Part shown: positions 21,650 to 55,981 of the stretch, piece after piece | Position numbering within the stretch: the first letter of the stretch is position 1 | How the letters are laid out: each line of letters opens with the position of its first letter | Source: Gemmatirosa kalamazoonensis | GTDB lineage: Bacteria > Gemmatimonadota > Gemmatimonadetes > Gemmatimonadales > Gemmatimonadaceae | Assembly (NCBI RefSeq): GCF_000522985.1 | Contig: NZ_CP007130.1 | Location: forward strand, 62,001-126,000 | DNA length: 64,000 bases | Direction: 5' to 3' | Position numbers and translations under genes: made by a program | The notes under the pieces: model-generated | What the model saw: the letters and a program-made list of their open reading frames with translations, nothing else | What the model was told of the DNA's origin: nothing | Database searches by the model: none

Positions 21650-21651
21650 AA

Positions 21652-22653: not shown

Positions 22654-22677
22654 CAGTGTTGAGCGTAGGAGTGATTG

Positions 22678-22744
22678 CTGCGTGGCTGCGTGGCTGCGTG
22701 AGCGCGTAGCTGTTACGCAGCCACGCAGCCACGCAGCCACGCAG
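22678..22744. repeat. Hairpin of GCGTGGCT tandem units
   Basis: CTGCGTGGCTGCGTGGCTGC at 22678-22697 is answered by GCAGCCACGCAGCCACGCAG within 22715-22744. It fills most of the gap between two minus-strand genes and ends just before the stop codon of the upstream dehydrogenase. Confidence 0.85.
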
Positions 22745-22745
22745 T

Positions 22746-23909
<1,164 letters not shown>

Positions 23910-23926
23910 GAGGATGTGGTTGGGCG

Positions 23927-25084: not shown

Positions 25085-25121
25085 CGGTTCGTTAGGCTGT
25101 CGTTGATGGTTGCTCGGCAAT

Positions 25122-25192
25122 GGGTCGTCCGCAGATTACGCAGAGCTCTTGGAAAGGCCTGCTGCGTAATCTGCGCAATCTGCGGACGACCC
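25122..25192. repeat. Hairpin of CTGCGTAAT/CGCAGATTACG units
   Basis: GGGTCGTCCGCAGATTACGC at 25122-25141 pairs with 25162-25192, which has one extra internal TCTGCGCAA unit and so bulges. It lies between two minus-strand genes, just downstream of GH106. Confidence 0.8.
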
Positions 25193-25203
25193 GAACAGCA
25201 CGG

Positions 25204-27954: not shown

Positions 27955-27956
27955 CG

Positions 27957-28919: not shown

Positions 28920-28945
28920 GCGGGAGGCGTTAGGCCGCGGAGCAC

Positions 28946-28973
28946 TTGACAGCGCACCCGCGCGCACGATCTT
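28946..28973 (+). promoter_or_regulatory. Candidate promoter for the GH78 gene
   Basis: TTGACA at 28946-28951, a 16-base spacer and GATCTT at 28968-28973. The pattern matches the candidate at 4871. The -10 element is weak by the sigma-70 consensus. Confidence 0.3.
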
Positions 28974-28991
28974 CGGCCGAGACTCGTTTCC

Positions 28992-29021
28992 GAACGGATT
29001 GCATAATCTGCACATTCGTTC
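28992..29021. promoter_or_regulatory. Candidate SorC operator (GAACG-N20-CGTTC dyad)
   Basis: GAACG (28992-28996) and CGTTC (29017-29021) flank an AT-richer centre ATTGCATAATCTGCACATT in an otherwise GC-rich gap between the regulator and the GH78 gene. SorC/DeoR regulators bind such dyads near their own promoters. Confidence 0.4.
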
Positions 29022-29046
29022 AGTCACGCCAGAGGGACCGACGCCC

Positions 29047-31818: not shown

Positions 31819-31840
31819 GCGGCGTCGTGGGCGGCGTGGC

Positions 31841-31973
31841 TCCACGTACGAGTGTTGGTTGGACTGAAGAAGGACTGAAGAGGGACTGAAGAAGGAGAAC
31901 ACCAACAATGTTGTTGGTCCTTCTTCAGTCCCCCTTCAGTCCTTCTTCAGTCCCCCAGAAACACGTACGTGGG
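31841..31973. repeat. Intergenic hairpin element, family 1 copy C
   Basis: TCCACGTACG at 31841 and CGTACGTGGG at 31964-31973 are the ends. The arms are GGACTGAAGAAGGACTGAAG-type units and their reverse complement, joined by an inner ACCAACA/TGTTGGT stem. It lies between convergent genes. Confidence 0.85.
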
Positions 31974-31993
31974 ACCGTGCCGGGCGCACCCGA

Positions 31994-34471: not shown

Positions 34472-34572
34472 GCGGCGCTCCTGTCGCGAGGATGCCGGTC
34501 CGTACGGGTGGTGGGCGCTCGTCGTTTCGACACGCTCGGCACGGGCATGCTCCGCGGCTCCGCGTGAGAAGA

Positions 34573-36195: not shown

Positions 36196-36292
36196 GGGGA
36201 TCCAAATGCGAGTGAACGGATCTCGGGATAGCCTCGAGACTGTAGCCTGTCGCCTATCGTGAGATCCGTTCGAATCGCTCGTGGATCCCCAT
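36194..36292. repeat. Hairpin abutting the GH28 start codon
   Basis: ATGGGGATCC at 36194-36203 pairs with GGATCCCCAT at 36283-36292, with inner pairs GCGA/TCGC and CGGATCTC/GAGATCCG. The ATG of GH28 (36195) lies at its left edge, so the transcript leader would fold up to the start codon. Confidence 0.8.
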
Positions 36293-36363
36293 CGTGTTCT
36301 CACCTCGCGCCTCGGTCGAGATGAAACACCTCGCGCAGGTGCGGAACGCATTGCGGATCATGC

Positions 36364-38349
36364 CTAACGGAGGTACGGCGCCACGGGACTGTTCGGCAGC
36401 CGCCGCAGCGCGTCGATGGCGATGCGCGCGCTGATCGCCGCGCCGTCGCGGTTCGTGTGCGTGTGGTCGGCGGGGAAGAGCGCGTGCACCCGCTCCTCGC
36501 CCATGGCGTCGTACTCGCGCGCGATCAGCTCGTTGAGGTCGATGAACGGAACGCCCTCGGCCCGCGCGACGTCGCCGGCCCACCCGGCGAAGCCGCCGAG
36601 GCCGCGGCGCACCCTGCCGTCGTCCCACGCGTCCTGCGGTACCGACGACGCGACGATCGGCGTGGCGCCCTTCGCGCGCGCGTCGGCGATGAGCTTCCGC
36701 AGGTACCAGCCGTAGCTGTGCACCGTCTCGTGCCGGTGCGTGACGCCGTTCTCTATCTCGACCGAGTCGTCGCCGATGCCGTGCAGCGTGCCGCGGGCGC
36801 GCGTCGTGTCGTTCACGGGGCTCGCGTCGTTGTGGCCGAACTGCATGACGACGACGTCGCCCGTGCGGAGCTGCGCGAGCACCGCGTCCCAGTAGCCCTG
36901 CGAGATGAACGTGCGGCTGCTCCGTCCGCCGAGCGCGCGGTTCACGACGTGGACGCGCGTCGTGTCGAAGTACGACGCCGTCAGATCGCCCCATCCCCAC
37001 TGGCCGTTCCCGCCGGTGCCGTTGCCGTTCCGCACGGTGGAGTCGCCGATGTAGAAGACCGTCGGCAGCGCGTCGCGCCGCGCGGGCTGCGCGACGAGCG
37101 GCGCGCGCACGCTCGCGGTCGGGTCGGGCGGGAGCTGCGCGCGCGCCACCTCCACGGCGTACGAGTCGCTCCGCCCCTCGAAGTTCGCGCGGAACACCAC
37201 CCACTTCCCGTCGGGGGAGAAGTGCACGTTCGGCTCGAGGCGGTAGTCGTGCGCGCGCATGTCGACGAGCTTCTCCGACACGAGCCGGTCGCCGTCGGGA
37301 CGGAACAGGTAGAGCCACCGGCCGTCCTTCGCGCGGGCCACCTGCGACGAGTCGCCGCCGTCGCCCGCGAACAGGAGCGGAGCCACCGGCGACTGGTTGA
37401 AGTGGATCGACCACTCGTCGCGCGTGAGCGCGTAGCGCGTCGTGCGGCCCGTCGCGACGTCGGCGCCCGCGAGGTAGAACGTCACGCCGCGCGGGATCTG
37501 CAGGTCGTACCAGATCGTGCGGCCGTCGGGGCTGAAGAACTCGTGGCCGGCGATCTCCCGCTCCATGGAGCGGTGGTGGATCTGCTTCACGTCGCCGCGG
37601 CGCACGTCGATCGTCCAGATGCGGTCGACGAGGTGCCACGGTCCCTCGTGGCAGAACATCAGCAGATCCGGATCCGTCGGCGAGAACTGCACGTGCCCGA
37701 TCCAGGTCCGCTCCTCGTGGATCCGCCGGAGCGCGCCGGTCTTCAGGTTGACGACGAACAGCGTGTGCCGTGGGTGCGCGGCGAAGATGCGGTCGAAGAA
37801 GTCGCGCTTCGCCGGATACTGCGCGAGGATCTCGCGCACCTCGGGACCGGCGATGACGCCGCCGAGCAGCGTCTCGTCGGCGTTGAGGGTGGTGACGCTC
37901 GCGTGCAGCGTCGGGGGCAGGGCGGCGAGCAGCCGCGTGCGGCGCGTGTCGAGGTGCGTCGCGAACACCGAGTCGCCACGCTGCCACACCGCCTCGCGGT
38001 GCCGCGGCGCGACGATCTCGCCGCGCGCGCCCCCCGGCTCGTCGGTGAGCTGCGCGATCGCGCGCGTCGCGAGGTCCACCGTGAAGAGCTGGCGCCCGTG
38101 CCCGGTCGTGCCGGCGAAGACCATGCGTCCGCCGCCGTCGCTCCGCCGCGGCACGAACGGGTCGTTGTGGAAGTAGAAGCTCTCGCTGCTCGCCTCCCGG
38201 TGCGTGAGCCGCACGACGCGATGCCCCGTCGCGCGGTCCACCCACTCGTCCGGCATCGCGCCACGCGTCTCGAGGGTCGGCGCGCGTTGGGCGCCGGCCG
38301 ACGCGAGCGGGAGAACGACGATCGAGGCGACGATCCAGGGGAGGCGCAT
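36364..38349 (-). CDS. Fusion of oligogalacturonate lyase (PL22) and rhamnogalacturonan acetylesterase (CE12)
   Basis: 661 residues with a signal peptide (VVLPLASAGAQ). Residues 30-420 form the seven-bladed propeller of oligogalacturonate lyases: TGHRVVRLTHREASSESFYF, IGHVQFSPTDPDLLMFCHEG and HEFFSPDGRTIWYDLQIP carry the metal-binding His residues. From about residue 430 an SGNH esterase follows: VFYIGDSTVRNG (catalytic Ser), NRALGGRSSRTF, VVMQFGHNDAS, and HTHTNRDGA near residue 630 (Asp/His dyad). The product would deacetylate rhamnogalacturonan and split unsaturated uronide oligomers. PL22 enzymes are often cytoplasmic, so an exported fusion is unusual. The gene sits next to GH28. Confidence 0.88.
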   Translation of the reverse strand: MRLPWIVASIVVLPLASAGAQRAPTLETRGAMPDEWVDRATGHRVVRLTHREASSESFYFHNDPFVPRRSDGGGRMVFAGTTGHGRQLFTVDLATRAIAQLTDEPGGARGEIVAPRHREAVWQRGDSVFATHLDTRRTRLLAALPPTLHASVTTLNADETLLGGVIAGPEVREILAQYPAKRDFFDRIFAAHPRHTLFVVNLKTGALRRIHEERTWIGHVQFSPTDPDLLMFCHEGPWHLVDRIWTIDVRRGDVKQIHHRSMEREIAGHEFFSPDGRTIWYDLQIPRGVTFYLAGADVATGRTTRYALTRDEWSIHFNQSPVAPLLFAGDGGDSSQVARAKDGRWLYLFRPDGDRLVSEKLVDMRAHDYRLEPNVHFSPDGKWVVFRANFEGRSDSYAVEVARAQLPPDPTASVRAPLVAQPARRDALPTVFYIGDSTVRNGNGTGGNGQWGWGDLTASYFDTTRVHVVNRALGGRSSRTFISQGYWDAVLAQLRTGDVVVMQFGHNDASPVNDTTRARGTLHGIGDDSVEIENGVTHRHETVHSYGWYLRKLIADARAKGATPIVASSVPQDAWDDGRVRRGLGGFAGWAGDVARAEGVPFIDLNELIAREYDAMGEERVHALFPADHTHTNRDGAAISARIAIDALRRLPNSPVAPYLR

Positions 38350-44284: not shown

Positions 44285-44462
44285 GGGCGCACCATCGCGG
44301 TGTCCGGAACGCCGCCGATTCTACGTATGTTGGATGGGGCGATGGCCGCACGTGTGCGCCGACGCTGGCGCGTGCGACCGGGGCAGCGCATCATGGTCGC
44401 TCGTTTCGATGGACCGCGCTACCCCGGCGGTCGCGCATCGCAGGACATCGCGAGTCGGGCGC

Positions 44463-45152
44463 ATGGCCATCCGGACCGCCATTCTCGGCGAGGTTCGATT
44501 GTTTCGCGACGGCCTCGCGAGCCTCCTGCGAGGGTCGCCTGCCGTCGACGTCGTCGCCACCGCGGCCACGCTCGCGGAGGCGCTGCAGGTCATCGAGCGC
44601 GACCAGCCCGAGGCCCTGCTGCTCGACATGGCGATGCCTAACGCGCTCGAGCAGATCCGGGCGCTCGCCGGCGCGTCGCGCGACCTGAAGATCGTGGCGC
44701 TCGGCGTGCCCGAGACCGCCACGGATGTGATGCCGTGCGCCGAGGCCGGCGCGGCCGGCTACGTGCCGCGCGACGCGTCCGTCGACGACCTGATCGGCGC
44801 GCTGCAGGCCGCCGCGCGCGGCGAGCTGCGGTGCTCCGTGCGCATCGCCGCCGCGCTGCTGCGCCGCGTCGCCGAGCTCGCGCGCACGCGCACCGGGATG
44901 CGCCCGGGCACGCGCGCGACGGCCCCCACCGCGCTCACGGCGCGCGAGCTCGACGTGCTGCGGCTGCTCGAGGCGGGACGCACGAACAAGGACATTGCGC
45001 GCGAGCTCGGCATCGAGCTCGCGACGGCGAAGAACCACGTCCACAACGTGCTCGAGAAGCTCGGCGTGCGCGGCCGCGCGCAGGCCATCGCGGTCGCATC
45101 GCGCTGGCTCCCCGGCGCCCCGAGCGGACTCGGCGTGCCCGTCGGCGGCTGA
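44463..45152 (+). CDS. LuxR/NarL-type response regulator
   Basis: 229 residues. The receiver domain has EALLLDMAMPNALEQ with the phospho-acceptor Asp, but the usual acidic pair near the N-terminus (after TAILGE) is reduced to AILGEVR. The output domain is a GerE-like HTH with LTARELDVLRLLEAGRTNKD and ATAKNHVHNVLEKLGVRGR. It is the first gene facing the unrecognised locus that follows and is a candidate regulator of it. No histidine kinase is adjacent. ATG 44463 begins the receiver fold. Confidence 0.88.
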   Translation: MAIRTAILGEVRLFRDGLASLLRGSPAVDVVATAATLAEALQVIERDQPEALLLDMAMPNALEQIRALAGASRDLKIVALGVPETATDVMPCAEAGAAGYVPRDASVDDLIGALQAAARGELRCSVRIAAALLRRVAELARTRTGMRPGTRATAPTALTARELDVLRLLEAGRTNKDIARELGIELATAKNHVHNVLEKLGVRGRAQAIAVASRWLPGAPSGLGVPVGG

Positions 45153-45203: not shown

Positions 45204-45274
45204 CGCGGTGCTCGGCACGCGAGGATGTGCCCCGACTGCATCTCCGCCTGAGCCCAACTTCGCTCCTTCGGCTC

Positions 45275-45706
45275 ATGGCGTCGCGCGCCGCCGACATCGA
45301 TCGTGGGCCTCGTCTCTCTCGGAGCCTGCCGGAGATGATCCGTGGTCCGACGGCGCGATCGCGCGTCCTGGTCTGGATACCGCCGGGAGTGTTCCGGTCG
45401 GTCATCATGGAAGCGCTGAAGGACGCGGCCGACATCGCCGTGCTCGACGCGGTGCCGCCGTGCGACGGTCCGACCGCACCGAGCGCGGTGGCGTTGCGCG
45501 ACACCGCGAAGCGCCTGCAGCCCGACGTGATCATCGTCCGCACCCCGGACGCGGACCTGCGGCGGCTCGTCGGCGACGCGAGCGAGATGTCCGCGGTGTT
45601 CGTCTCGACCGACGGCCGCCGCGCGCTCGCCTACGATCGCGACGTGTCGGCGAGCTCGCTGCTGGGTCTCGTGCGGTCGGTCGCCGAGAGCGCCCTTCGT
45701 CAGTGA
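45275..45706 (+). CDS. Receiver-like protein of unknown function
   Basis: 143 residues from ATG 45275; a start at 45335 (with GGAG upstream) would give 123. RSRVLVWIPPGVFRSVIMEA, LQPDVIIVRTPDADLRRLV and MSAVFVSTDGRRALAYDRDV follow the strand order of a response-regulator receiver. The Asp equivalent is not evident (IIVRTPD) and there is no output domain. It may be a pseudo-receiver that partners with the LuxR regulator just upstream. It ends 22 bases before the first gene of the unknown locus. Confidence 0.6.
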   Translation: MASRAADIDRGPRLSRSLPEMIRGPTARSRVLVWIPPGVFRSVIMEALKDAADIAVLDAVPPCDGPTAPSAVALRDTAKRLQPDVIIVRTPDADLRRLVGDASEMSAVFVSTDGRRALAYDRDVSASSLLGLVRSVAESALRQ

Positions 45707-45728: not shown

Positions 45729-46727
45729 ATGGCTGCGAACGACTGGCGCCTGACGTCGACGGAGTATCCCGCGGTCCGCCGCGTCATGGGCCCCGACCGG
45801 ATGGCGCTCGACGACGATGCGCTCGAGGCGCTGCTCGCGCGCACGTTTCCCGGGACGCCGGCGGAGGACGTGGAGGACTTCATGGGCACGATCCAGCGCT
45901 TCGGGCGTGACGCGGCGCCGATCGTCCAGCGCGCGCTGCCGGGCGTGGTGCAGGGCGCGGCCCAGGGCGGCGCGGTCGCCGGCCCGTGGGGCGCGGTCGC
46001 CGGCGGCATCATCGGCGGCGGCTCGGCGCTCCTCGGCGGCGGCGGTGCGCCGAGCGCCGGGGCGCGTGCGGCACCACCCGCACCGGCTCCGACGCCCAAC
46101 GCACCCGCCGCCTCGCCGCCTAACGCGACGCCTAACGCGACGCCTAACGCGACGCCGAACGCGCCGCCTAACGTGACGCCGAGCGCACCGCCCGTGGCGT
46201 CGTCGAACGGCGCGCCGAACGCGCCGGCCGTCGCCCCGCTCGGCACGACGTCGAGCCTCACGCCCGACGCGGCGGCGATGCAGCTCGTCGCGCTGCTGAC
46301 GCGGCCCGAGACGATCCAGGCGCTGCTCGCGCTCGTTCTCGCCGCGGTGGGTCGCCAGACCATCGCCGTGGGCTCGCGGCAGGTCCCGCCGACCGCGTTC
46401 GCGAACGCGATCGCCGAGCTGGCGTCCGTCGCGGCATCGGACGGGCCGGCGGTGGAGGACTACGCGGCCGAGCACCTCTACGACGACGTCGGCCAGCCCC
46501 GCGGCGACATCGCGAATCCCGCGGAGCGCGCTGCGATGCTGCTGACCGACCTCGCCGCGGTCGCGATCATCGACGCCGACGGCGAGGCGATGGACGACGC
46601 CGAGGCATCGGGCGACGCATGGGACGACGCGTGGGACGATGCGTGGGACGACGCGTGGGACGAGTCCGACCCCATGGCCGCGTTCGAGGCGGCCACGCGC
46701 GACTGGCGGGAGTGGCCCGATGTCTGA
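45729..46727 (+). CDS. Unknown protein with glycine-zipper segment, PN(A/V)T repeats and acidic tail
   Basis: 332 residues, preceded by GGAGGAAG. I do not recognise a family. Residues 1-60 look helical (DRMALDDDALEALLARTFPG). Residues 71-106 form a glycine-zipper type hydrophobic stretch (QGAAQGGAVAGPWGAVAGG, then more Gly and Ile). Next comes a Pro/Ala/Asn linker with repeated NATP units encoded by tandem CCTAACGCGACG copies, then a helical domain (QLVALLTRPETIQALLALVL). The tail is strongly acidic with repeated DDAW units (46614-46664). There is no signal peptide. It overlaps the next gene by eight bases. Glycine zippers occur in membrane-inserting and oligomerising proteins, so a structural or pore-like role is possible but unproven. 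Confidence 0.7.
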   Translation: MAANDWRLTSTEYPAVRRVMGPDRMALDDDALEALLARTFPGTPAEDVEDFMGTIQRFGRDAAPIVQRALPGVVQGAAQGGAVAGPWGAVAGGIIGGGSALLGGGGAPSAGARAAPPAPAPTPNAPAASPPNATPNATPNATPNAPPNVTPSAPPVASSNGAPNAPAVAPLGTTSSLTPDAAAMQLVALLTRPETIQALLALVLAAVGRQTIAVGSRQVPPTAFANAIAELASVAASDGPAVEDYAAEHLYDDVGQPRGDIANPAERAAMLLTDLAAVAIIDADGEAMDDAEASGDAWDDAWDDAWDDAWDESDPMAAFEAATRDWREWPDV

Positions 46728-47385
46728 CCCCACGCGCGCCGACGATCCGACGGGCGAGGGGCCATCGGGGCAGGGAGCGGGAGCTGCCGCGCTGCCGCTG
46801 CTGCTCGGCCTCCTCCAGGGCGGGGGCGGCCTGCCGTCGCTGATGATGGCGCTGGCCGAGGCGCCGCTCACCCCCGAGCAGCGCGCGGTCATGGAGCTCC
46901 TCGGCGCGCTCGGCAGCCGGCGCGACGACGACGACGACGATGACGACGATGACGACGACGACATCGACGAGCCGCGCCGGCGCGCGGCATGGCGCGCCGC
47001 GCGATACGGCACGCGATACGGCGCGTCGCCGCCTGTGAGCGAGCCCGTCGTCGACGTGCCGTTCTACTCGCCGCCCGAGCCCGAGCCCGACCCGTCGTCG
47101 TCCGATCCGTCGGCCGACGAGATGGTGTGCGTCGACGTGCGCACGCTCGCGCGCATGCGTCAGGAGCTCGCGAGCCTGCGCGAGGTGAACGACACGCTCG
47201 CCGCGGCGCTCGGCGCGTGCCGCGCGTGCTGGGGCGGCGAGGCGCACTGTCCGTTGTGCGGCGGCCACGGGAGCAGCGGCGCGTCGCCGCCGGACCCGCC
47301 GCTGTTCGAGGCGCTGGTGGTTCCGGCCGTCCGGCGCATGCGCGCTCGCGCGCACCCCTCCCCTACCACGGAGGATTCCCCATGA
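46720..47385 (+). CDS. Unknown protein with hydrophobic Leu/Gly segment, poly-Asp run and CxxC pairs
   Basis: 221 residues. Residues about 21-45 are Leu/Gly-rich (AAALPLLLGLLQGGGGLPSL), and SPEQRAV-like helices follow. A run of 13 Asp codons lies at 46924-46962. The C-terminal third has a heptad-like MRQELASLREVNDTLAAALG helix, then CRACWGGEAHCPLCGGHG. The two CxxC pairs (Cys 167, 170, 177, 180) suggest a zinc-binding knuckle like that of DnaJ. No family is recognised. It overlaps both neighbours by 8 and 4 bases, so all are likely translated together. Confidence 0.68.
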   Translation: MSDPTRADDPTGEGPSGQGAGAAALPLLLGLLQGGGGLPSLMMALAEAPLTPEQRAVMELLGALGSRRDDDDDDDDDDDDDIDEPRRRAAWRAARYGTRYGASPPVSEPVVDVPFYSPPEPEPDPSSSDPSADEMVCVDVRTLARMRQELASLREVNDTLAAALGACRACWGGEAHCPLCGGHGSSGASPPDPPLFEALVVPAVRRMRARAHPSPTTEDSP

Positions 47386-48020
47386 ACGCCGAGGACTACG
47401 AGACCATGGAGACCGACGAGAGCTACGGGCCTAACGTCGCGGAATACGACCACGGTGAGGTGGACGAGATGCTCGACTCGCTGATCGACGCGGCCGGCGG
47501 GGAGTTCGGCGAGGCGCGCCGCGGACGCGGGCGTGGCCGCGGCCGCACGAACGGCCGCCCGGTGCCGACCCCCGACGGTCGATCCGCGTACCGCGACCCG
47601 ACCGGCGCCGGCAACGGCCCGGTCACGCAGAAGCAGTACAAGGAAGGGATGGACAAGGTCGCCGCCGAGTTCGTGCGCACCGCGAAGGGCATCCAGGAGA
47701 TCAACGCGCGGCTCGGCACGATCGATCGCCGCGTCGACGGCGTCGTCACCGTCGCGACGGCGCAGAGCCGCCAGCTCACGCGGATCGAGAAGCTGAACAA
47801 GGCGGACGGCGCGCTGGAGCTTGTCGAGGCGCTGAACGGCACCCAGCTGAACGTGTTCCAGCTCCTGAAGGGGGCCGTGAAGCTGGGCTTCCTGGGCGAC
47901 GGCAAGGGCGCGCTCGGCAACCCGGTGGTGATCGGCGGCATCGGACTGCTGCTCCGCAATCCGGGCATCCTCGGCGGTCTCGCGAACGGCTTCAACGCGA
48001 ACGCCGCCGGCACCCCGTAG
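47382..48020 (+). CDS. Unknown protein with Arg/Gly-rich linker, coiled coil and C-terminal hydrophobic segment
   Basis: 212 residues with GGAGG upstream. The acidic N-terminus (residues 1-40) is followed by an ARRGRGRGRGRTNGRP basic linker. A long amphipathic region comes next (EGMDKVAAEFVRTAKGIQEI, INARLGTIDRRVDGVV, SRQLTRIEKLNK). The C-terminus is a Gly/Ile/Leu-rich stretch at about residues 180-204 (NPVVIGGIGLLLRNPGILGG). The charge layout (acidic, basic, coiled coil, hydrophobic) suggests an assembly or membrane-associating protein. No signal peptide and no recognised family. Confidence 0.68.
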   Translation: MNAEDYETMETDESYGPNVAEYDHGEVDEMLDSLIDAAGGEFGEARRGRGRGRGRTNGRPVPTPDGRSAYRDPTGAGNGPVTQKQYKEGMDKVAAEFVRTAKGIQEINARLGTIDRRVDGVVTVATAQSRQLTRIEKLNKADGALELVEALNGTQLNVFQLLKGAVKLGFLGDGKGALGNPVVIGGIGLLLRNPGILGGLANGFNANAAGTP

Positions 48021-48047
48021 CACATCGTCCCAACGGAGGCTCACAAC

Positions 48048-48707
48048 ATGGGCGTGACCATTCCCATCGGCGGCGGATCCGCCGGGTCGGGCGCCGCGGC
48101 CGGGATCAACATCCCGCTCGGGATCGGCGTGCCGGCGTTAGGCACCGGCGCCTCGACGCGCGAGACGCAGATCCTGCGCGCGGTGGCCGCTGCCGCCGCG
48201 CTCGAGGACCCGGCCAACGCGCTCGAGCTGGCGCGGCAGGCGAGGGACGACCCCGGGTCGGTCGTCGCGCCGACGATCGACGCGGCGAAGCTCGCGCTCG
48301 TCGTCGACGCGGTCGACCGCCGGCGCACGGACGGCACGGGCGCACCGTCGATCACGGCATTGCACACGGCGGCGGCGGGCGCGATCGGCGCGAGCGCGGC
48401 GCTCGTCGCCGCGGGCGACGCCGTGCTCGCGGACCGCACCAACGGCTCGCTGCCGCAGGCGCTCGCGTGGGTCGCCTCGATCGACGCGACGCTGCTGGAG
48501 CGCGCGGCGCTCGCCGGCGAGCGCCGGCGGGAGCTCGATCGGATCGCGGCACCCGCTGCCACCGTCGTGAACGATCGCATCGACCAGCTCGAGACGCGCG
48601 TCGGCACGATCGACACGCGCGTGACGTCGCTCGACACGCGCGTCACGAACCTCGACACCCGCCTCACCGCGCTCGAGGCGCGCGTGACGGCGCTCGAGAC
48701 GAGCTAG
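48048..48707 (+). CDS. Unknown protein with glycine-rich start and C-terminal coiled coil
   Basis: 219 residues with a good GGAGG site. The N-terminus is Gly/Ile-rich (TIPIGGGSAGSGAAAGINIP). The middle is Ala-rich helix (REtq-type heptads through ELARQARDD). The end is a regular coiled coil made of repeated TRVTSLD-type heptads (DTRVTSLDTRVTNLDTRLTA). Such heptad ladders are typical of trimeric fibre or scaffold proteins, including phage tail and spike-associated parts. The family is unknown. It is the fourth gene of a run that leads into the giant protease. Confidence 0.68.
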   Translation: MGVTIPIGGGSAGSGAAAGINIPLGIGVPALGTGASTRETQILRAVAAAAALEDPANALELARQARDDPGSVVAPTIDAAKLALVVDAVDRRRTDGTGAPSITALHTAAAGAIGASAALVAAGDAVLADRTNGSLPQALAWVASIDATLLERAALAGERRRELDRIAAPAATVVNDRIDQLETRVGTIDTRVTSLDTRVTNLDTRLTALEARVTALETS

Positions 48708-48877
48708 TCCACCGGTGGCTCGGCCAGTAGCGCGTCCAACGAGTACGCGAGCAGTACGTCGACGCCGCCCCCGCCCGCCACGTCGAAGGGAAAGAGCGCG
48801 TCCGGCGCGCAGCAGGCCGGCCAGCCGTGACGCAGACAGTCGACACGGCGGCGTAGCGATCCTCGCGGCGACGGCAT
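48704..48877 (-). CDS. Possible small antisense ORF, 57 residues
   Basis: An ATG at 48877 opens a short frame that ends opposite the stop of the coiled-coil gene. It contains Cys/Pro-rich (HGWPACCAPDALFPFD) and acidic (YSLDALLAEPPVD) segments. It fills the only real gap in this part of the locus. No ribosome-binding site is convincing, so it may be chance. Confidence 0.2.
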   Translation of the reverse strand: MPSPRGSLRRRVDCLRHGWPACCAPDALFPFDVAGGGGVDVLLAYSLDALLAEPPVD

Positions 48878-48926
48878 CACCGCGCCGCGAGGGCCGCGCG
48901 CCGGTCCGCTCACCACGGTGCAGCCG

Positions 48927-51900
48927 ATGGCCGACCCGCAGGCGGAGGTTCGCCAGTACGACCCGGCGCTCGCCGAGGTCGCGCGCGAGGGCGACGGCGA
49001 CGACGAGATCTCGCTCATCGCGCGCGTGCCCGACGTGACCGCGCTGCCCCCGGGCGTGCGCGCCGTCACGCGCTTCGGCGACGTGGTGACGCTGCGCGCG
49101 CCCCGCTCGCAGCTCGTCGCGCTCGCCGAGAGCCCCGCGGTGGTGGAGATGGAGGCGGCGTTCCACCTCCTGCCGTCGATCGAGGTGCTGGACGCGCCTC
49201 CGTCAGGCATCGACGCGTCCGACGCGGATCCGTTAGGCGCCGACGACGCGCTGGGCGACCTGCCGATCGCCGAGGACGCGCCCGACGACTCGCCGTACAC
49301 GCGCCGGCCCGCGGGGCTCGTCGCGACCGGACGCGGCGTCGTGATCGGCGTGCTCGATTGGGGCTTCGATTTCGCGCTCGACACGTTCCGCAACGGCGAC
49401 GGCTCGACGCGGCTGCTCGCGCTCTGGGACCAGCGCGGCGACGCCGGCTCGGGGCCCGACAACGTCTGGGGCTACGGGCGCATCCACACCGCCGCGGAGA
49501 TCGATCGCGCCCTCGCCGCGCCCGACCCGTACCGGACGCTCGGCTACCATCCCGCCGACGCCGACGCGCCCGACCGCGCGACCCACGAACGATACGGCAC
49601 GCACGGCACGCACGTGCTGGACATCGCGGCGGGCAACGGCCGCGGTGCCGCAATGAGCGGCGTGGCGCCCGACGCACGGCTCGTGTGCGTGCACCTCGCG
49701 CGCACGTCGGACGTGCTCGGCCCGCGCAACCTCGGCGACTCGGCCAGCCTGCTCGAGGCGCTCGACTTCGTGTTCCGCGTCGCGAACGGTCGGCCGTGCG
49801 TCGTGAACATGAGCGTCGGCGCGCAGGGCGGGCCGCACGACGGGTCGACGATGGTGGAGCAGGGGATCGACCGCGCGGTGTGGCTCGAGCCGGGCCGCGC
49901 GGTGTGCAACAGCATCGGCAACTACGCCATGGCGGGCGCCCACCAGCACGGGCGGCTGCGCACCGGCGAGGAGGCGGTGCTGCGCCTGACCGTGCCGACG
50001 CACGACACGACGCCTAACGAGGTGGAGGTCTGGTACGCGCGCGGCGATCGGTTCCTCGTCACGATCGTCGGGCCCGACGGCGCGCAGCTCGCCGCGGTCG
50101 CGCCGGGCGCGGAGGCCCCGCTCACCATCGGCGGCCGCGGCGTGGGCTACGTGTACCACGTGCGCACCGCGGGCACGGGCGAGCACCAGGTGGATCTGTT
50201 CCTCTATCCCCGCGCGCCCGGCGGCACGTGGGAGATCCGGCTGCGCGGGGACGCCGCGCCCGACGGCCGCTTCCACGCGTGGGTGGAGCGCAAGCGCGGG
50301 CCGCACCCGCGGTTCGCCGACTCCGCGGACGGGCCGCTGTTCACGACCGGCACGCTGTGCAACGGCCGCCTGTCGATCGGCGTCGGCGCGTACGACCCGC
50401 ACGACGCGTCGCGCCGGATCGCGCGCTTCTCGAGCGCCGGGCCGACGCGCGACGGCCGGCTCAAGCCGGAGGTGTGCGCGCCCGGCGTGAGCATCTCGGC
50501 CGCGCGCTCCACGCCGCCGGGCGAGGCGCCGTCGGCGCGCGCCGTCTCGAAATCCGGCACCAGCATGGCCACGCCCCACGTGGTGGGCGTCGTCGCCGTC
50601 ATGTTCGAGGCGATCGGCCGGCCGATCGAGATCCTGGACACGCGGGCGCTGCTGCTGGCGAGCACCGACCACGCGGCGATCGACGACGACGACCCGGACG
50701 CGAACCTCGACGTCCACCGCATCGGCCACGGCTACCTCGACCCCGTCGCCGCCGAGCGTGCCGCGCGGCGGTGGGCTCGCGACGACTTCTCCGGAGACAC
50801 CGCCATGAGCTCGACCTCCGACGCATGGGCCCGCGAGTCGCTCGACGACGCGCTCGACGACGCGCTCGACGACTCGGTCGTCGCGACGTCGCCGTCGCTC
50901 GCGGACTTCGCGTTCCTCACCGGCGTGCCTAACGCCCCGGTCGTGCCTGACGGTACGGACGTCGCCGAGGACGACGGCGGGCCGGGACACGCGATCCCGC
51001 GCGCGGTGGTGAAGGACGTGCTCGGGAACCGCATCCTCGACCTGCTCTGGGAGCCGATCGCCGACGACGACGCGCCGCGCGTCGTGCGCCGGCTCGGCGA
51101 CCTGCGGACGCTGTTCGACGCCGTGCCGTCGGGGCCTAACGCGTGCCAGCTGCTCACCCGGCTCAACCCGGGCGGCGACCTGCAGCGCGACTTCGACTAC
51201 CGGCTGATGACGTCGACGCGACGCGAGCTGCGCGAGAGCCTGCGCGTGCGCTGCCATGCGCCACCACCCCCACCGCCACCGCCGCCACCGCCGCCACCTC
51301 CTCCGCCACCACCTCCGCCACCACCGCCGCCGCCACCCCCACCGCCGCCACCGCCACCGCCACCGAAGCCCGCGCCGAAAGCGCGGGCGTGGCAGCTGGC
51401 CGGCGAGTACGTGTTCGCGACGAAGGACCGCGTCGTCAAGCGGTTCAAGTACTTCACGGTCCTCGGGCACATCGAGGTGCAGATCGTCGCCACCGTGAAC
51501 GCCACCGACGACGAGCTGGTGAAGATCAAGGCGCGGTGGGTGAACGGCGACTACAAGCCGCAGGTCGAGGCGGGCCTAACGGATTACCTCGGCTTCGACG
51601 TGAAGGCCGAGTCGGCGAAGGGGAAGTACAAGATCCAGTTCAAGCGCGACATCGGCGTCGGCCCGATCGAGGTGACGCCGGCGATCCAGTCGAGCCTGAC
51701 GGATCCGTTCCAGGTCAAGGTCAAGACCCCGAAGGTGACGCTGCCGATCACCATCCTCGGCAACGAGTTCCGCCTCGCCGCGAAGGCGATGATCGTGCTC
51801 ACGCTGCACTTCGAGTGGGGGCAGTATCTCAAGGACCGCGTCAAGCGGACGATCAAGGACATCCTCGAGGATCTGCTGGGCGACGTGGCCGAGTTCTTCG

Positions 51901-54900
51901 GCGGGCTGTTCGGGCACTCGATCCTCCGCTCCATCCTCGCGGGTCTCATCGGCCTCGTCGCGGTGAAGCTGCTGTGGGACAAGGACGACGGCGGGGAGAT
52001 CCCGCTCCCGCAGCTCGACGACGTGCGCGGGCACAAGGGCGCGCTCAAGCTCGCCGGCGGCAGCGGCGACGCCGGAGCCCGTCTGCTCAAGGAAGCGGAG
52101 GCGTACCGCAAGGCGTTCGCAATCGGCATCGGCGACACGCTCGGCGAGCTCACCGAGGCGACGTGGAAGACGAGGCTCGCCACCGTCACGACGACGGTGC
52201 ACGTGCCCAGCCTGGCGAGCCTGCCCGCGGTCTCCGCGGAGCACGAGGTGTGGGTGCGCTGGGCGCCGAGCGCCGCCCGCATCGGCAGCGAGGCGGTCGA
52301 TCTGACGAACGACGACTACGTCGCGCGCTACCGACTCTGCGAGAAGGCGCTGATGTACGCGTACGCCGCGTACTACGCCCGCCGGTTGTCGAAGAAGGAT
52401 CTCGACGACGTGCGCGGGGTCGTGCATCAGCAGGCGACGGCAGCGGGCATGGCGGCCGCGGTGATGCACGTGCACGCAACGATCGCGCGCGAGACGTACG
52501 TCTACATCGACGAGACCGGCGCGTCGCAGCGGGCCGACGGCATCGCGGCGTGGGACGCCATCGCGGGCATCGCTCGCGACGCCGCGCCCGATCGGATGAA
52601 CCGGCAGCGTCGGCTCGCCGGCCTGGTGACCGATTTCCTGCCACGCCTCGGCGGCGCCGCGCTGCAGGAAGCCGCCGACGACACCGATGCCGTGCGCGAC
52701 GACGGCGCCGGCGCGGACGCGAGCGGCCTGACAGCCGAGGCCCAGCCCAACGCCACCGTGGCGCACGTCGTCGGCACGAAGCGCAACCCGAAGCCCGCGC
52801 GCCCGACGAAGGTGATGCCGGAGTCGGCCGAGGAGGACGCGGGCGACGATCGCTCGTTCCGCGAGCGCCTGCTCGAGCGCGCCGCCGACGCGACGCCGCG
52901 CGACGCCGCGGGGCTCCTCGCGCTCGCGGCTGCGCTGCTCGGGCGACGGAACGCGCTCACGCCGCTGTCGAGCCCCGGCATGCAGCTCTCCGAGGCGCCG
53001 CGCGCCGGCGACGTGCTCGTACGCTCGGCACCGAGGCAGGGCGTGCGCTACAAGGCCGTGATCGTGTCGGAGCGGCCGGAGCTGGCGTGGGAGATCAAGC
53101 GCCGCGGCGTGACGGTGGAGGCGAGCGGCGACGGGCTGTACGTCGAGGTGGCGGAGGTGCCTAACGACGGCGGCGACGTGCGGACGGTGGGCCGGCGACT
53201 CACGGATGCGTGGCGGCGGCTGCCCGCGGGCCAGGGCGTCTACCGCTTCCGCGACGCGCACGACGAGCAGTACCGCGAGGACGACGATGCCGACGACGAC
53301 GACCGGAACCCGCTCCACGACTGGGTCGCCGACCGTCAGTCCATCGTCTTCCTCGTGGGGGACGGCCACCTGTTCCTGCTGCCGTCGTCGACGCTCGGCG
53401 TCGTCACGCCGCCGGAGAAGCTCGGGAAGATCGACTGGAGCCGGGTCGTCGTCGCGAACGACCTCGGGCCGCTGTTGGGCCTTCCGGCCGTCGCCGCGGG
53501 CGCGTCGCGCGTGTTCCGCGCCGGCCCGCGCCTCGGCGTGATGCTCGACGCCGGCCGGAACCCGCAGCGACAGCCGGCCGCGGTGTACCTGGACCACCTC
53601 GCGGCGCGCGTGCGCGACCTCGGGCTGTCCGAGGTGCGCACGGTGATCCTCATCCACCGCCACGCCGACCACGCGAACGAGCTCGCGCGCGTCGTGCAGG
53701 ACTACGGCATCAAGCCCGAGAACGTCGTCATCCCGCGCGCGTACGACGCGCAGCAGCCCGACGAGGTGTACGAGGCGACGATGCGGGCGCTGCGCGCGCG
53801 CTTCGGCGCGAGCTGGAAGCCCGCGGACCTGAAGCTGCAGCCGGCGACGCCGACCGGCACGCTCGTGCGCGGACGCTACACGTTGGGCGACGCGACGTTC
53901 GAGTTCCTCGCCGACAGCGCGAAGCTCAAGCTGCCGCGCCACACCGATGCCGCGTCGCTGCTCGTGCGCGTGACGCGGCGCGGCGAGCGGAACGCCGTCG
54001 TCGTGCTGGGCGACTTCCGCGGCGCCGACCTCGAGTCGCTGCACGACCTGATGGGCGCGCGCGCGTGGAGCGAGACGTTCCGCGACGTGCGGCTCATCGA
54101 CGGCTTCAGCCATCACCGCGGCGCGATGACCGCGGCCGACGTGCCCGGCATCATGCGCCTGCTCGAGGCGACGCTGCTGCGGAATGGCAGGCTCGCCGTC
54201 ACGCTGCAGACCGATCCCGGGCAGCACGTGCAGGCGCGCGCCGACACGCTCGAGCTGATGCGCCGCATCGGCGTCGAGGTCGTGGAGACGAACGTCGGCG
54301 CGCAGACGGCGTCCGGCGTGCAGGCGACGAGCGGCGGTGCCCGGCCGATCGGTCCCGCGGCCACAGTGTACAGTCCGATCCGCTCGCCGCTCGTCGCCGC
54401 GCTCGAGCGCATCGCGCGGCTCGAGGCGGCGCGCGAGACGATCGAGCTGTGGGGACCGCACGTCGCGCGCACGACCAAGGGCTACGATCCGCAATCGGAT
54501 CTGCGCACGATCGAGCGCTCGCTCGACGAGCTGCGCACGACGACCGGCGCCGCGCTGCTGGCGGCCGCCCAGGTGCGCACGGCGCCGGCAGCGCGTGGAC
54601 AGCAGCCCGTGCGCGATTACGCCACCGGCGCCGCGGGCACCGCGTTCACCGCGGCGGTCGGACGCATTCCCGCGACGACCGCGGCGGAGACGGCGATCGG
54701 AACGACTGGCTTCGAGCAGCTGCGGCGGCTGCGCGAGGTGCCCGAGCGAGAGGTGCCGCTGCGCGTCCAGCTCACCGACGCGTTGCAGAACGGCCGGTTC
54801 ACGAAGGAGGCGTTCCGCTACATGGTGAGCCAGCTCGATCCCGCGACGCGGAAGAGCATCTTCACCGGGCCGCGCGGCGGGCCGGCCGGCGAGCTGACCG

Positions 54901-55688
54901 TGATGCGCCGAGTGCGCGCGCAGTTCGGGTTCCAGCAGATGCTCGGCGACATGGAGACGATGAGCGTCGCGCATCTGACCCCGGCAGGACGGGTCGGCGC
55001 GCGCGGCGTCGCCGGCGTGCTGCTCGCCGTGGAGATCGGGAACCTCGTCGCGCAGGGCGTCGAGGCCTATCGCATCTCCAAGGACACGGCGCGCCGACGC
55101 AACGTCGCCCCGTTCCTGCGGCGCATCGCGTTCTGGCGCCAGCTCGGCGTGCACGCCGCGGAGGTGGCGGTCGACGACGGCGTGTTCAGCGCCGACGAGT
55201 CGCGCGACGCGGCGGAGATCGACGAGGGGCTGAAGAAGGACCGCTGGAACTTCCTGTTCATCGAGCACACGAGCACGCGGCCGGCGCTCTCCGACGCGGC
55301 GATCCTGCGCCTCGGCGTGGTGTTGGGCCAGATGGTCCGCAGCTACGACGAGTACGCGACGCTGTTCGAGGACTCGTTCCAGGACGCGATCCGCTTCGTG
55401 CCCGACCCGAAGAACTGGACGGACGCGCGGTGGGAGGTGTGCGTCGGCTCGTTCGAGACGTCGGGGGAGAACCACATCGCGGAGCGGTGGGTGGAGCTGC
55501 CGCTGCTCACCGAGACGATGCGCGCGGTCACGCGCCGCGTCGTCGCGAACACCGCGGAGCTGTTGAGCCGCATCGGGCGCAACGTGTCGGCGGACACGCA
55601 GGACTTCGGCACGCTGACGGAGCCGCCGGGGACGCTCCAGTATCGCGCGCGCGCGGCAGCGGGCAGCCGACCACGATCTTCGAGGTGA
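48927..55688 (+). CDS. Giant subtilisin (S8)–polyproline–MBL-fold protein of the unknown locus
   Basis: About 2,253 residues before a stop that is probably not the original one. Residues 130-600 are an S8 peptidase of the Csp-like type: VIGVLDWGFDF (Asp 144), THGTHV region with His 226, and KSGTSMATPHVVG (Ser 546), so the triad is intact. DDALDD repeats and a helical section lead to a run of 35 prolines (779-813). A middle region follows with no recognised family, including amphipathic and TM-like helices (SILRSILAGLIGLVAVKLLW). Near residue 1577 an MBL-type HxHxDH motif (LIHRHADHANEL) starts a metallo-beta-lactamase-like domain; FLADSAKLKLPR and GDFRGADLE fit its later strands. The C-terminal ~650 residues are helical and unassigned. 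No signal peptide. ATG 48927 or GTG 48918 may be the start. It may process or deliver the preceding proteins. Confidence 0.8.
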   Translation: MADPQAEVRQYDPALAEVAREGDGDDEISLIARVPDVTALPPGVRAVTRFGDVVTLRAPRSQLVALAESPAVVEMEAAFHLLPSIEVLDAPPSGIDASDADPLGADDALGDLPIAEDAPDDSPYTRRPAGLVATGRGVVIGVLDWGFDFALDTFRNGDGSTRLLALWDQRGDAGSGPDNVWGYGRIHTAAEIDRALAAPDPYRTLGYHPADADAPDRATHERYGTHGTHVLDIAAGNGRGAAMSGVAPDARLVCVHLARTSDVLGPRNLGDSASLLEALDFVFRVANGRPCVVNMSVGAQGGPHDGSTMVEQGIDRAVWLEPGRAVCNSIGNYAMAGAHQHGRLRTGEEAVLRLTVPTHDTTPNEVEVWYARGDRFLVTIVGPDGAQLAAVAPGAEAPLTIGGRGVGYVYHVRTAGTGEHQVDLFLYPRAPGGTWEIRLRGDAAPDGRFHAWVERKRGPHPRFADSADGPLFTTGTLCNGRLSIGVGAYDPHDASRRIARFSSAGPTRDGRLKPEVCAPGVSISAARSTPPGEAPSARAVSKSGTSMATPHVVGVVAVMFEAIGRPIEILDTRALLLASTDHAAIDDDDPDANLDVHRIGHGYLDPVAAERAARRWARDDFSGDTAMSSTSDAWARESLDDALDDALDDSVVATSPSLADFAFLTGVPNAPVVPDGTDVAEDDGGPGHAIPRAVVKDVLGNRILDLLWEPIADDDAPRVVRRLGDLRTLFDAVPSGPNACQLLTRLNPGGDLQRDFDYRLMTSTRRELRESLRVRCHAPPPPPPPPPPPPPPPPPPPPPPPPPPPPPPPPPPPKPAPKARAWQLAGEYVFATKDRVVKRFKYFTVLGHIEVQIVATVNATDDELVKIKARWVNGDYKPQVEAGLTDYLGFDVKAESAKGKYKIQFKRDIGVGPIEVTPAIQSSLTDPFQVKVKTPKVTLPITILGNEFRLAAKAMIVLTLHFEWGQYLKDRVKRTIKDILEDLLGDVAEFFGGLFGHSILRSILAGLIGLVAVKLLWDKDDGGEIPLPQLDDVRGHKGALKLAGGSGDAGARLLKEAEAYRKAFAIGIGDTLGELTEATWKTRLATVTTTVHVPSLASLPAVSAEHEVWVRWAPSAARIGSEAVDLTNDDYVARYRLCEKALMYAYAAYYARRLSKKDLDDVRGVVHQQATAAGMAAAVMHVHATIARETYVYIDETGASQRADGIAAWDAIAGIARDAAPDRMNRQRRLAGLVTDFLPRLGGAALQEAADDTDAVRDDGAGADASGLTAEAQPNATVAHVVGTKRNPKPARPTKVMPESAEEDAGDDRSFRERLLERAADATPRDAAGLLALAAALLGRRNALTPLSSPGMQLSEAPRAGDVLVRSAPRQGVRYKAVIVSERPELAWEIKRRGVTVEASGDGLYVEVAEVPNDGGDVRTVGRRLTDAWRRLPAGQGVYRFRDAHDEQYREDDDADDDDRNPLHDWVADRQSIVFLVGDGHLFLLPSSTLGVVTPPEKLGKIDWSRVVVANDLGPLLGLPAVAAGASRVFRAGPRLGVMLDAGRNPQRQPAAVYLDHLAARVRDLGLSEVRTVILIHRHADHANELARVVQDYGIKPENVVIPRAYDAQQPDEVYEATMRALRARFGASWKPADLKLQPATPTGTLVRGRYTLGDATFEFLADSAKLKLPRHTDAASLLVRVTRRGERNAVVVLGDFRGADLESLHDLMGARAWSETFRDVRLIDGFSHHRGAMTAADVPGIMRLLEATLLRNGRLAVTLQTDPGQHVQARADTLELMRRIGVEVVETNVGAQTASGVQATSGGARPIGPAATVYSPIRSPLVAALERIARLEAARETIELWGPHVARTTKGYDPQSDLRTIERSLDELRTTTGAALLAAAQVRTAPAARGQQPVRDYATGAAGTAFTAAVGRIPATTAAETAIGTTGFEQLRRLREVPEREVPLRVQLTDALQNGRFTKEAFRYMVSQLDPATRKSIFTGPRGGPAGELTVMRRVRAQFGFQQMLGDMETMSVAHLTPAGRVGARGVAGVLLAVEIGNLVAQGVEAYRISKDTARRRNVAPFLRRIAFWRQLGVHAAEVAVDDGVFSADESRDAAEIDEGLKKDRWNFLFIEHTSTRPALSDAAILRLGVVLGQMVRSYDEYATLFEDSFQDAIRFVPDPKNWTDARWEVCVGSFETSGENHIAERWVELPLLTETMRAVTRRVVANTAELLSRIGRNVSADTQDFGTLTEPPGTLQYRARAAAGSRPRSSR
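51261..51365 (+). repeat. Run of 35 proline codons in the giant S8 protein
   Basis: Thirty-five consecutive CCN codons of mixed third base (CCA, CCG, CCC, CCT). Because the third base varies, the run is not simple recent slippage of one triplet and may be kept by selection as a stiff linker. Confidence 0.95.
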
Positions 55689-55981
55689 AGTCGCACGCCC
55701 CGTCGGCGTGGGGCGGCGCGCCGGGCGTCGCGCCGAAGAGCACCTACCACAAGATCACGTGGGGCGCGAGCCGGCCGGAGTACTTCGTGTGGGCGGTGGA
55801 CGGTGTAGACGTGCGGGTGAGCGGGTCGAACTTCACGACGTACGCGCTGCTGCGGGACTTCGAGAAGTACGAGTACTCGGTGGGCACCCGCGGCGACGTG
55901 CTGAACGCGACGTTCGAGCGGCTCGTGCGGAACGCGACCGGCGACGCGTGGGTGCTGGTGCCGGACATCGAGCGGGTCTGA
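55652..55981 (+). pseudogene. C-terminal ~110 residues of the giant protein in a shifted frame
   Basis: The frame shifts at a (CG)6 tract (55644-55655). In the new frame the chain continues GQPTTIFEVKSHAPSAWGG and further to VPDIERV, with good codon bias up to a stop at 55979-55981. The in-frame end of the upstream frame is a short basic tail (RPRSSR). A loss or gain of one CG unit, a sequencing error or programmed frameshifting could explain this. It has no start codon of its own. Confidence 0.6.

What the first reader, a model, noticed from the sequence alone, without database searches (positions are those of the whole stretch)
45729..55981. Unrecognised five-gene locus built around a giant subtilisin–polyproline–MBL protein
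Seen: four consecutive small proteins, three with start/stop overlaps, each have a Gly/Ile/Leu-rich hydrophobic segment, low-complexity acidic or basic linkers and no signal peptide. The fifth is over 2,200 residues long and joins an intact S8 triad (Asp144, His226, Ser546), a 35-Pro rod and an HxHxDH metallo-beta-lactamase-like site (1577-1582). Known: Csp-like subtilases process partner proteins, and MBL folds are often hydrolases. Inference: the protease could mature or release the glycine-rich proteins as part of a contact-dependent, secretion or self-assembling system. I recognise no published system with this gene order.
Basis: partly seen in the sequence, partly recalled or inferred. 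Interest (0 to 1): 0.8.

Follow-up and report, generated by a model that had tools for sequence, protein, structure and literature searches.

The report
Five-gene protease cassette with swappable payloads
A soil bacterium carries a five-gene set, four small proteins of no known family followed by a protease fused to an interchangeable enzyme that most often acts on bacterial cell walls, and the same set recurs in unrelated bacteria of six phyla, which suggests an undescribed way of deploying such enzymes.

Summary
The window lies in Gemmatirosa kalamazoonesis (genome size identical to the published one). Profiles of ORF1-ORF3 find the same genes, in the same order and strand, directly upstream of a related S8 protease in all 14 loci from six phyla that have upstream sequence (one lacks a detectable ORF1). 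ORF4 is recognisable in 10 of them. None of about 50 loci with more distant S8 proteases has them. ORF1-ORF3 match no Pfam, PHROGs, NCBIfam or PADLOC family. The S8 core (intact triad; nearest solved relatives the clostridial Csp germination proteases) is conserved, but what follows it is swapped: amidase, VanY/M15, M23, lysozyme-like, OmpA and peptidoglycan-binding domains, phospholipase D, and here a metallo-beta-lactamase fold. A shared 'GDVL' domain links most payloads and also occurs in neighbouring payload proteins without S8. Best reading: a mobile, polymorphic, mostly wall-directed effector cassette in which the Csp-like protease processes or activates attached or neighbouring enzymes and ORF1-4 form a scaffold. 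Conservation and payload swapping are shown; activation, export and target are inferred. The giant gene is frameshifted near 55,650-55,680. No eCIS or type IV secretion link was found.

The parts
45729..46727 (+). ORF1 (332 aa): acidic N-terminal helical part, Gly/Ala-zipper hydrophobic segment, low-complexity Pro/Asn/Ala linker, conserved helical C-terminal domain (QLxxLLxxPExxQALLALxLxxxGRQxIxVGxxxVPxxAFANxI)
   Evidence: 36% identical to the gene in the same place in Cupriavidus; HMM finds it in 13 of 14 cassettes; no family; low-confidence model of a relative with a long hydrophobic helical hairpin
46720..47385 (+). ORF2 (221 aa): coiled-coil plus invariant zinc knuckle GACxxCxGxxxxCxxCxGxGxxG
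   Evidence: 12-sequence alignment with 11 invariant columns including four Cys; found in 14 of 14 cassettes
47218..47280 (+). zinc knuckle of ORF2 (residues 167-187), locally like the CxxCxGxG units of DnaJ
   Evidence: five weak hits in Acidobacteriota to about 355-aa proteins over these columns only, read as DnaJ
47382..48020 (+). ORF3 (212 aa): acidic start, basic low-complexity linker, coiled-coil 'VTQxQLxxALxRV' region, Gly/Leu-rich hydrophobic C-terminus
   Evidence: alignment with the Cupriavidus and Streptomyces genes; HMM hit in 14 of 14 cassettes, weakest in L016 at E 0.0037
48048..48707 (+). ORF4 (219 aa): small hydrophobic core plus variable tail; here a heptad coiled-coil (residues 173-218, 21-nt repeats). 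Elsewhere PASTA repeats or a Big_2 domain (in L016, where ORF3 and ORF4 appear fused)
   Evidence: HMM finds it in 10 of 14 cassettes, a different ORF sits there in the rest
48927..55688 (+). ORF5, giant S8 protein (2253 aa in the start frame; alternative GTG start 48918)
48927..49328 (+). conserved N-terminal region of the cassette S8 proteins (DPxLxE...GDDE...GVRxVxxFGxVVTxR), probably the prodomain
   Evidence: prodomain role inferred from Csp (PMC3567191)
49329..50666 (+). S8 catalytic domain, triad D144/H226/S546, with an internal beta-rich stretch aligned through by Csp proteases
   Evidence: Pfam 1.5e-27; Csp structures align continuously over residues 130-561; catalytic residues intact in all 15 cassette S8s
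51261..51365 (+). 35-proline rod (residues 779-813), not seen in the other cassettes
52944..53255 (+). 'GDVL' domain (residues 1340-1443), shared by most cassette S8 proteins and by two neighbouring payload proteins without S8
   Evidence: HMM E 1.6e-7 here; alignment; relative in L011 modelled with pLDDT 89.6
53616..54071 (+). payload of this copy: metallo-beta-lactamase-like fold (HRHADH 53655-53672, then GD and HH motifs)
   Evidence: Lactamase_B_2 E 0.006, below cut-off; weak similarity to CbpE, E 0.011
55664..55981 (+). C-terminal tail of ORF5 in the -1 frame (IFEVKSHAP...), coding by GC3
   Evidence: no family match above cut-off
44403..45152 (+). upstream response regulator with receiver and GerE (LuxR) output domain; possible regulator
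45227..45706 (+). small protein 22 nt upstream of ORF1, by eye like a degenerate receiver; possibly co-transcribed, not conserved in other cassettes

Best explanation
This is a horizontally spread, polymorphic, mostly cell-envelope-directed effector cassette. Shown: four small core proteins (ORF1-4) and a Csp-like S8 protease stay together in order across six phyla, while the part after the protease is exchanged between many enzymes, most of them peptidoglycan hydrolases or peptidoglycan-binding domains; a GDVL domain marks most of these payload proteins. Inferred: the S8 domain folds with its prodomain, autoprocesses, and by limited proteolysis frees or activates the attached payload and neighbouring payload proteins, as CspB activates the cortex hydrolase SleC. 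ORF1 and ORF3 (Gly-zipper or Gly/Leu segments), the coiled-coil and zinc-knuckle ORF2, and ORF4 (hydrophobic core plus PASTA, Ig-like or coiled-coil tail) form a membrane- or wall-associated scaffold that holds, exports or presents the protease-payload, with GDVL as the docking or sorting domain. The likeliest use is attack on neighbouring bacteria after lysis or release. The payload of this copy is an MBL-fold hydrolase.
For: Synteny. No hits in control S8 loci. Payloads: PG_binding_1 in L003, Amidase_2 + PGBD in L010, OmpA in L013 and L015, VanY in L016; Extensin-like_C + Phage_lysozyme2 + PGBD in L019, VanY/Muramidase genes next door; PLD + PGBD in L080, M23 + PGBD in L081, M15_4 + VanY in the second GDVL protein of L014. 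Recent payload swap within one plasmid: two Cupriavidus proteins are 71% identical over 259 aa including GDVL and PGBD, then unrelated. ORF4 PASTA and Big_2. Csp as nearest solved relatives: NCBIfam; Csp-SleC biology in PMC3567191 and PMC5241399. Triad intact in all copies. GDVL domain. Sporadic spread.
Against: No secretion route is known: no signal peptides, no sheath or VirB4 gene found in this genome. No immunity gene follows the giant gene here. The payload of this copy is not a recognised wall enzyme; the MBL assignment is weak, and L018 and L080 carry non-wall domains. L011 has no enzyme after GDVL (its payloads are in the next gene), and L004 and L015 lack a detectable GDVL domain. The hydrophobic segments are only borderline for membrane spans. 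Proteolysis of any payload is untested.
Confidence: 0.42

Rival explanations
1. Self-directed wall remodelling or programmed lysis: as in Csp-SleC germination, the cassette acts on the producer's own envelope, opening its wall in a developmental or stress response to release contents or particles. The hydrophobic ORF1/ORF3 would act like holins and the payloads like endolysins.
For: Nearest solved relatives act on the producer's own spore cortex (PMC3567191); VanY, muramidase, amidase and phage-lysozyme-like payloads; no immunity gene; PASTA and OmpA wall anchors.
Against: Payload swapping, PLD, MBL and CHAT-like payloads and the sporadic distribution look like conflict rather than house-keeping; members of these lineages are not endospore formers (general knowledge).
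Confidence: 0.25
2. Cargo or accessory module of extracellular contractile injection systems (eCIS), or a system released together with them.
For: Seven of 13 carrier genomes or records searched hold a contractile sheath gene; most sampled loci look like eCIS by eye; BTAD or GerE regulators lie near some cassettes, regulators also named for eCIS in PMC8213781.
Against: No sheath hit in G. kalamazoonesis, whose genome is rated 100% complete; the sheath loci of the other carriers contain neither cassette genes nor GDVL proteins; no base rate was measured for the same lineages.
Confidence: 0.12
3. Intracellular anti-phage defence: a protease-effector system with variable effectors (PLD, MBL, CHAT-like) that kills the infected cell.
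For: S8, PLD, CHAT and MBL domains occur in defence systems (general knowledge); a generic 'subtilase' PADLOC model matches the S8 domain.
Against: No PADLOC model matches ORF1-3 of either set tested; most payloads and ORF4 tails are wall-directed; no nucleic-acid or nucleotide sensor in the cassette.
Confidence: 0.08
4. Secreted exoenzyme complex for feeding on dead cells or for building extracellular matrix, without a conflict role.
For: Wall-degrading and wall-binding domains; carriers are mostly free-living environmental bacteria.
Against: Does not explain the four strictly conserved small proteins, the lack of signal peptides, or the swapping behind a constant protease.
Confidence: 0.1

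Closest known systems
Clostridial Csp germination proteases (CspB/CspBA, PDB 4I0W, 6MW4, 9T7M)
   Same: Closest solved relatives of the S8 domain, aligned continuously over residues 130-561 including the internal insertion; an N-terminal region where the prodomain lies; Csp proteases activate a peptidoglycan hydrolase
   Different: Not in spore formers; fused to varied enzymes; accompanied by four unrelated small proteins; no SleC or CspC partner
Polymorphic toxin systems (CDI, Rhs, MuF, T6SS/T7SS effectors)
   Same: Constant N-terminal part with exchangeable C-terminal enzymes; recently diverged paralogue with a different tip on one plasmid
   Different: No known trafficking domain, no immunity gene after the effector here, a conserved active-looking protease at the N-terminus and four constant partner proteins
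eCIS loci with DUF4157 effectors (PMC8213781)
   Same: Long multidomain effectors with variable C-termini; regulators of the GerE/BTAD type near some cassettes
   Different: No tail tube, sheath or baseplate genes; the constant protease is S8, not a DUF4157 metallopeptidase; absent from the sheath loci sampled from carriers
CHAP/NlpC-P60/Gsp amidase fold
   Same: GDVL domain model resembles the barrel half (Z 5.0-5.7)
   Different: Aligned from residue 75 onward of the LysK-type CHAP domains, so without the part that carries the catalytic Cys helix; weak scores, no sequence match

Membership tests
Csp germination protease family | intact Asp/His/Ser subtilase triad | tested here: met
   all 15 cassette S8s (the Csp family itself includes pseudoproteases)
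Csp germination protease family | internal jellyroll insertion of about 130 aa in the subtilase domain | tested here: inconclusive
   one continuous alignment to Csp structures over residues 130-561 while most other subtilases match only short pieces; not modelled in 3D
Csp germination protease family | retained, autoprocessed prodomain | not testable with these tools
   needs protein biochemistry; a conserved N-terminal region is present
Csp germination protease family | membership by the curated NCBIfam models CspBA/CspC | tested here: not met
   best score 115.8 bits against a cut-off of 1250
Polymorphic toxin system | constant N-terminal region with exchangeable C-terminal enzyme domains | tested here: met
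Polymorphic toxin system | known trafficking or secretion domain at the N-terminus | tested here: not met
   only Peptidase_S8 found; GDVL is a candidate docking domain without proof
Polymorphic toxin system | immunity gene directly downstream | tested here: not met
   in the window no same-strand gene follows closely; the next recognised gene is on the - strand
extracellular contractile injection system | sheath, tube and baseplate genes in or near the locus | tested here: not met
   none seen in the cassettes; no PF04984 hit in G000
type IV secretion effector | VirB4 ATPase in the carrier | tested here: not met
   PF03135 in 1 of 15 carrier genomes or records
known anti-phage defence systems | match of the core proteins to PADLOC models | tested here: not met
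   only generic subtilase/IetS for S8 and a PD-T4-6 match, probably PASTA-driven, for ORF4 of L011
bacteriophage or viral element | presence in phage or viral contigs | tested here: inconclusive
   no relatives in viral contigs and none of the GDVL domain in phages; phages hold only the S8 domain; scans reach close relatives only
metallo-beta-lactamase superfamily | HxHxDH motif plus further metal ligands in fold order | tested here: inconclusive
   HRHADH, then GD and HH present; Pfam score under the curated cut-off

The most novel reading that the evidence does not exclude
ORF1-4 form a previously unknown, Sec-independent assembly that exports or injects a protease-armed, exchangeable wall-lytic payload into or onto other cells, a protein-delivery system not derived from phage tails, conjugation or any numbered secretion system.
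Probability: 0.3. Interest if true: 0.92.

Novelty: categorically new. Interest (0 to 1): 0.72.

Why it matters
Four uncharacterised protein families are tied, in constant order, to a Csp-like protease and to a changing set of mostly wall-active enzymes in at least six phyla. That makes a concrete, testable system out of proteins absent from the family libraries searched, and a handle on two open questions: how large enzymes without signal peptides reach cell walls, and whether protease activation of wall hydrolases, known from clostridial spores, is a wider strategy in bacterial conflict or lysis. The GDVL domain could serve as a marker to find further payloads.

Tried and rejected
(1) Single-protein scan of genome contigs with the MBL part: no relatives; no relative of this payload was found. 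(2) Type IV secretion: the GDVL model resembled the TraI translocation-signal domain (Z 4.2-5.3), but that domain is part of a vestigial helicase (PMC3912908) and VirB4 occurs in 1 of 15 carriers. (3) eCIS: unlinked co-occurrence only. (4) Viral origin: no relatives in viral contigs, no GDVL match in phages. (5) Defence databases. (6) ORF1 structure: mean pLDDT 60, so not used for a fold search; a match of its profile to a crAss phage cargo protein (E 0.0013) covers the Gly-rich part and is probably compositional. (7) GDVL fold: no Foldseek match under E 0.001 in PDB or viral models. (8) Conserved regulator: BTAD genes near L004, L015 and L018, a receiver-type gene in L003, a GerE regulator here; none is constant. 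(9) Promoter and terminator scan of the region: nothing above chance.

Full report
What was checked. The window is contig C4 (1,040,503 bp), positions 62001-126000, of a 7,479,215-bp genome. That size is identical to the one published for Gemmatirosa kalamazoonesis in PMC11271474, which also reports a putative extrachromosomal element. The five genes exist as described, with small corrections: two stop/start overlaps (joining three genes), and a giant gene whose reading frame ends at 55688 but whose coding signal continues in the -1 frame to 55981.

Families. ORF1-3 match nothing convincing in Pfam, PHROGs, NCBIfam or PADLOC; ORF4 matches only generic coiled-coil models. The giant protein matches Peptidase_S8 (1.5e-27) and, below cut-off, Lactamase_B_2. 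The best NCBIfam models for the S8 part are the clostridial CspBA and CspC proteins, far below their curated cut-offs, and the best solved relatives are Csp germination proteases (9t7m E 1.7e-27; also 4i0w CspB), aligned in one stretch over residues 130-561, whereas most other subtilases align only in pieces.

The cassette is real. tblastn of the giant protein against plasmids gave a Cupriavidus oxalaticus plasmid (41% over residues 7-605) and a Streptomyces canus plasmid. The Cupriavidus plasmid, unannotated there, carries four small genes in the same order upstream: ORF1 36% and ORF2 39% identical, ORF3 about 26%, ORF4 about 21%, S8 43% over 634 columns. A scan of GTDB contigs with the N-terminal part of the S8 proteins added ten true relatives: three cyanobacteria, Thermoanaerobaculia, Saprospiraceae, Cytophagales, Hyphomicrobiales, Kineosporiaceae, Cellulomonas and Sedimenticola. 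Two more cyanobacteria came from genome searches. Profiles built from five to seven seeds each were run over six-frame translations of all loci. In all 14 loci with a core S8 protein and upstream sequence (window, L003, L004, L010-L012, L014-L019, L080, L081) ORF2 and ORF3 are found in order and strand; ORF1 in 13 (cut by the contig end in L010, not detected in L019); ORF4 in 10, the others having a different ORF in that place, or in L016 an apparent ORF3-ORF4 fusion with a Big_2 domain. L013 lacks upstream sequence, but another contig of the same genome holds ORF1-3. Loci with more distant S8 proteins (L005-L007, L020-L068) gave no hit to ORF1-4. A tree of S8 domains is compatible with one origin of the cassette S8s (support 79/49, so not proven), and the Cupriavidus copy groups with cyanobacterial ones. 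The cassette is rare: among genomes sampled per phylum, 3 of 386 in the cyanobacterial set, 1 of 396 Actinomycetota, 1 of 395 Bacteroidota, 1 of 396 Acidobacteriota after setting aside five weak zinc-knuckle hits read as DnaJ, and of 200 Gemmatimonadota this genome plus one weak hit with an internal stop. Each of these counts includes the query genome itself. This is what horizontal spread would give.

Variable payloads. Downstream of the S8 core the proteins differ: peptidoglycan-binding repeats in L003; Amidase_2 plus peptidoglycan-binding in L010, with an amidase-like motif by eye in L012; OmpA in L013 and L015; VanY in L016; Extensin-like_C, peptidoglycan-binding and phage tail lysozyme in L019; phospholipase D plus peptidoglycan-binding in L080; M23 plus peptidoglycan-binding in L081. 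By eye, a caspase/CHAT-like motif is present in L018 and an alpha/beta-hydrolase-like domain in L014. Here it is a metallo-beta-lactamase-like fold whose weak best solved match is the teichoic-acid phosphorylcholine esterase CbpE (E 0.011). In three cyanobacteria the next gene encodes VanY, with N-acetylmuramidase in L011 and L012. On the Cupriavidus plasmid a second, truncated copy has the N-terminus of ORF1 next to a protein 71% identical to the first over 259 residues, after which similarity stops: a recent payload exchange. ORF4 shows the same principle, with PASTA repeats in L012 and by sequence in L003, L010, L011 and L080, Big_2 in L016, coiled coils here and in L081.

The GDVL domain. 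A domain of about 125 residues lies after S8, usually before the payload, in most cassettes, and also in two proteins without S8 (L003 3697-6120 minus strand; L014 11001-15221, which carries M15_4 and VanY). It models with confidence (pLDDT 89.6). Foldseek finds nothing at E 0.001; VIA-align gives the barrel half of CHAP and Gsp-amidase folds at Z 5.0-5.7, a level at which the tool itself warns of common arrangements. I propose, without proof, that it docks payload proteins to the core.

How it probably works. Shown: conservation of the five genes, intact triads in all 15 S8 domains, exchange of payloads, and wall-directed domains in the majority of them. From established knowledge: Csp proteases autoprocess, keep their prodomain, and activate the cortex hydrolase SleC by limited cleavage (PMC3567191); their packaging into C. 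difficile spores depends on a gel-forming low-complexity protein, GerG (PMC5241399), an analogy for the low-complexity ORF1-ORF3, no more (its gel-forming repeats were dispensable for that role). Inferred: the S8 domain releases or activates the enzymes joined to it or docked through GDVL, and ORF1-4 form a membrane- or wall-associated scaffold. Hydropathy of ORF1, ORF3 and ORF4 is only borderline for membrane spans. The target (neighbour or self) is not decided by the data; payload swapping and scattered distribution favour conflict, the missing immunity gene favours self or distant targets.

Delivery tests. A contractile sheath gene was found in 7 of 13 carrier genomes or records but not in G. 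kalamazoonesis. Most sampled sheath loci look like eCIS by eye and none holds cassette or GDVL genes, so the cassette is not part of those loci; whether co-occurrence exceeds the base rate was not measured. PF04984 alone could miss a divergent sheath. VirB4 is nearly absent from carriers. No relatives were found in viral contigs.

Confidence. Conserved cassette: about 0.97. Constant core with exchanged, mostly wall-directed payload: about 0.9. Protease acting on payload: about 0.5. Attack on neighbours rather than self: about 0.4. Novelty rests on absence from the family libraries and from the open-access literature searched; a description in a subscription journal or preprint cannot be excluded.

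Noticed in passing
window 55640-55690: The giant gene changes frame (GC3 moves from frame 0 to frame 2) in a GC-repeat stretch: one-base deletion, assembly error or true frameshift; the last ~100 residues lie beyond it.
   Followed up: partly
L003 3694-6665 (minus strand): Truncated second cassette on the Cupriavidus plasmid: N-terminus of ORF1 next to a GDVL protein with another payload, which by eye contains a lysozyme/transglycosylase-like motif (ESG...YNGG); the middle of the cassette is missing.
   Followed up: partly
L017 8858-9997: The Cytophagales cassette has an additional coiled-coil gene (379 aa) between ORF4 and the S8 gene.
   Followed up: no
genomes G216, G217, G218, G219, G221, G222, G223: Carriers of the cassette often also carry contractile sheath genes, on other contigs where this could be compared; enrichment over the base rate was not tested.
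   Followed up: partly
L004 8465-9220, L015 5793-6656, L018 6607-7437: BTAD/SARP-type regulators lie beside three cassettes; PMC8213781 names BTAD and GerE regulators for eCIS loci.
   Followed up: partly
L020-L068: A large, separate group of S8 proteins in Flavobacteriales and relatives shares the VLDWGFD motif but has no ORF1-4 upstream.
   Followed up: no
L007 7902-11389 and 11791-20801: An Agrobacterium plasmid S8 protein of a related branch is preceded by two small hypothetical genes of another type and lies near phospholipase D and caspase-family genes.
   Followed up: no
window 48708-48926: The 219-nt gap between ORF4 and the S8 start is longer than in several other cassettes and its use is unclear.
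   Followed up: no
window 16700-36400: Much of this stretch looks by eye like ordinary sugar metabolism (Gfo/Idh oxidoreductases, sugar isomerase, rhamnosidase- and polygalacturonase-like genes), so the cassette sits as an isolated island.
   Followed up: partly
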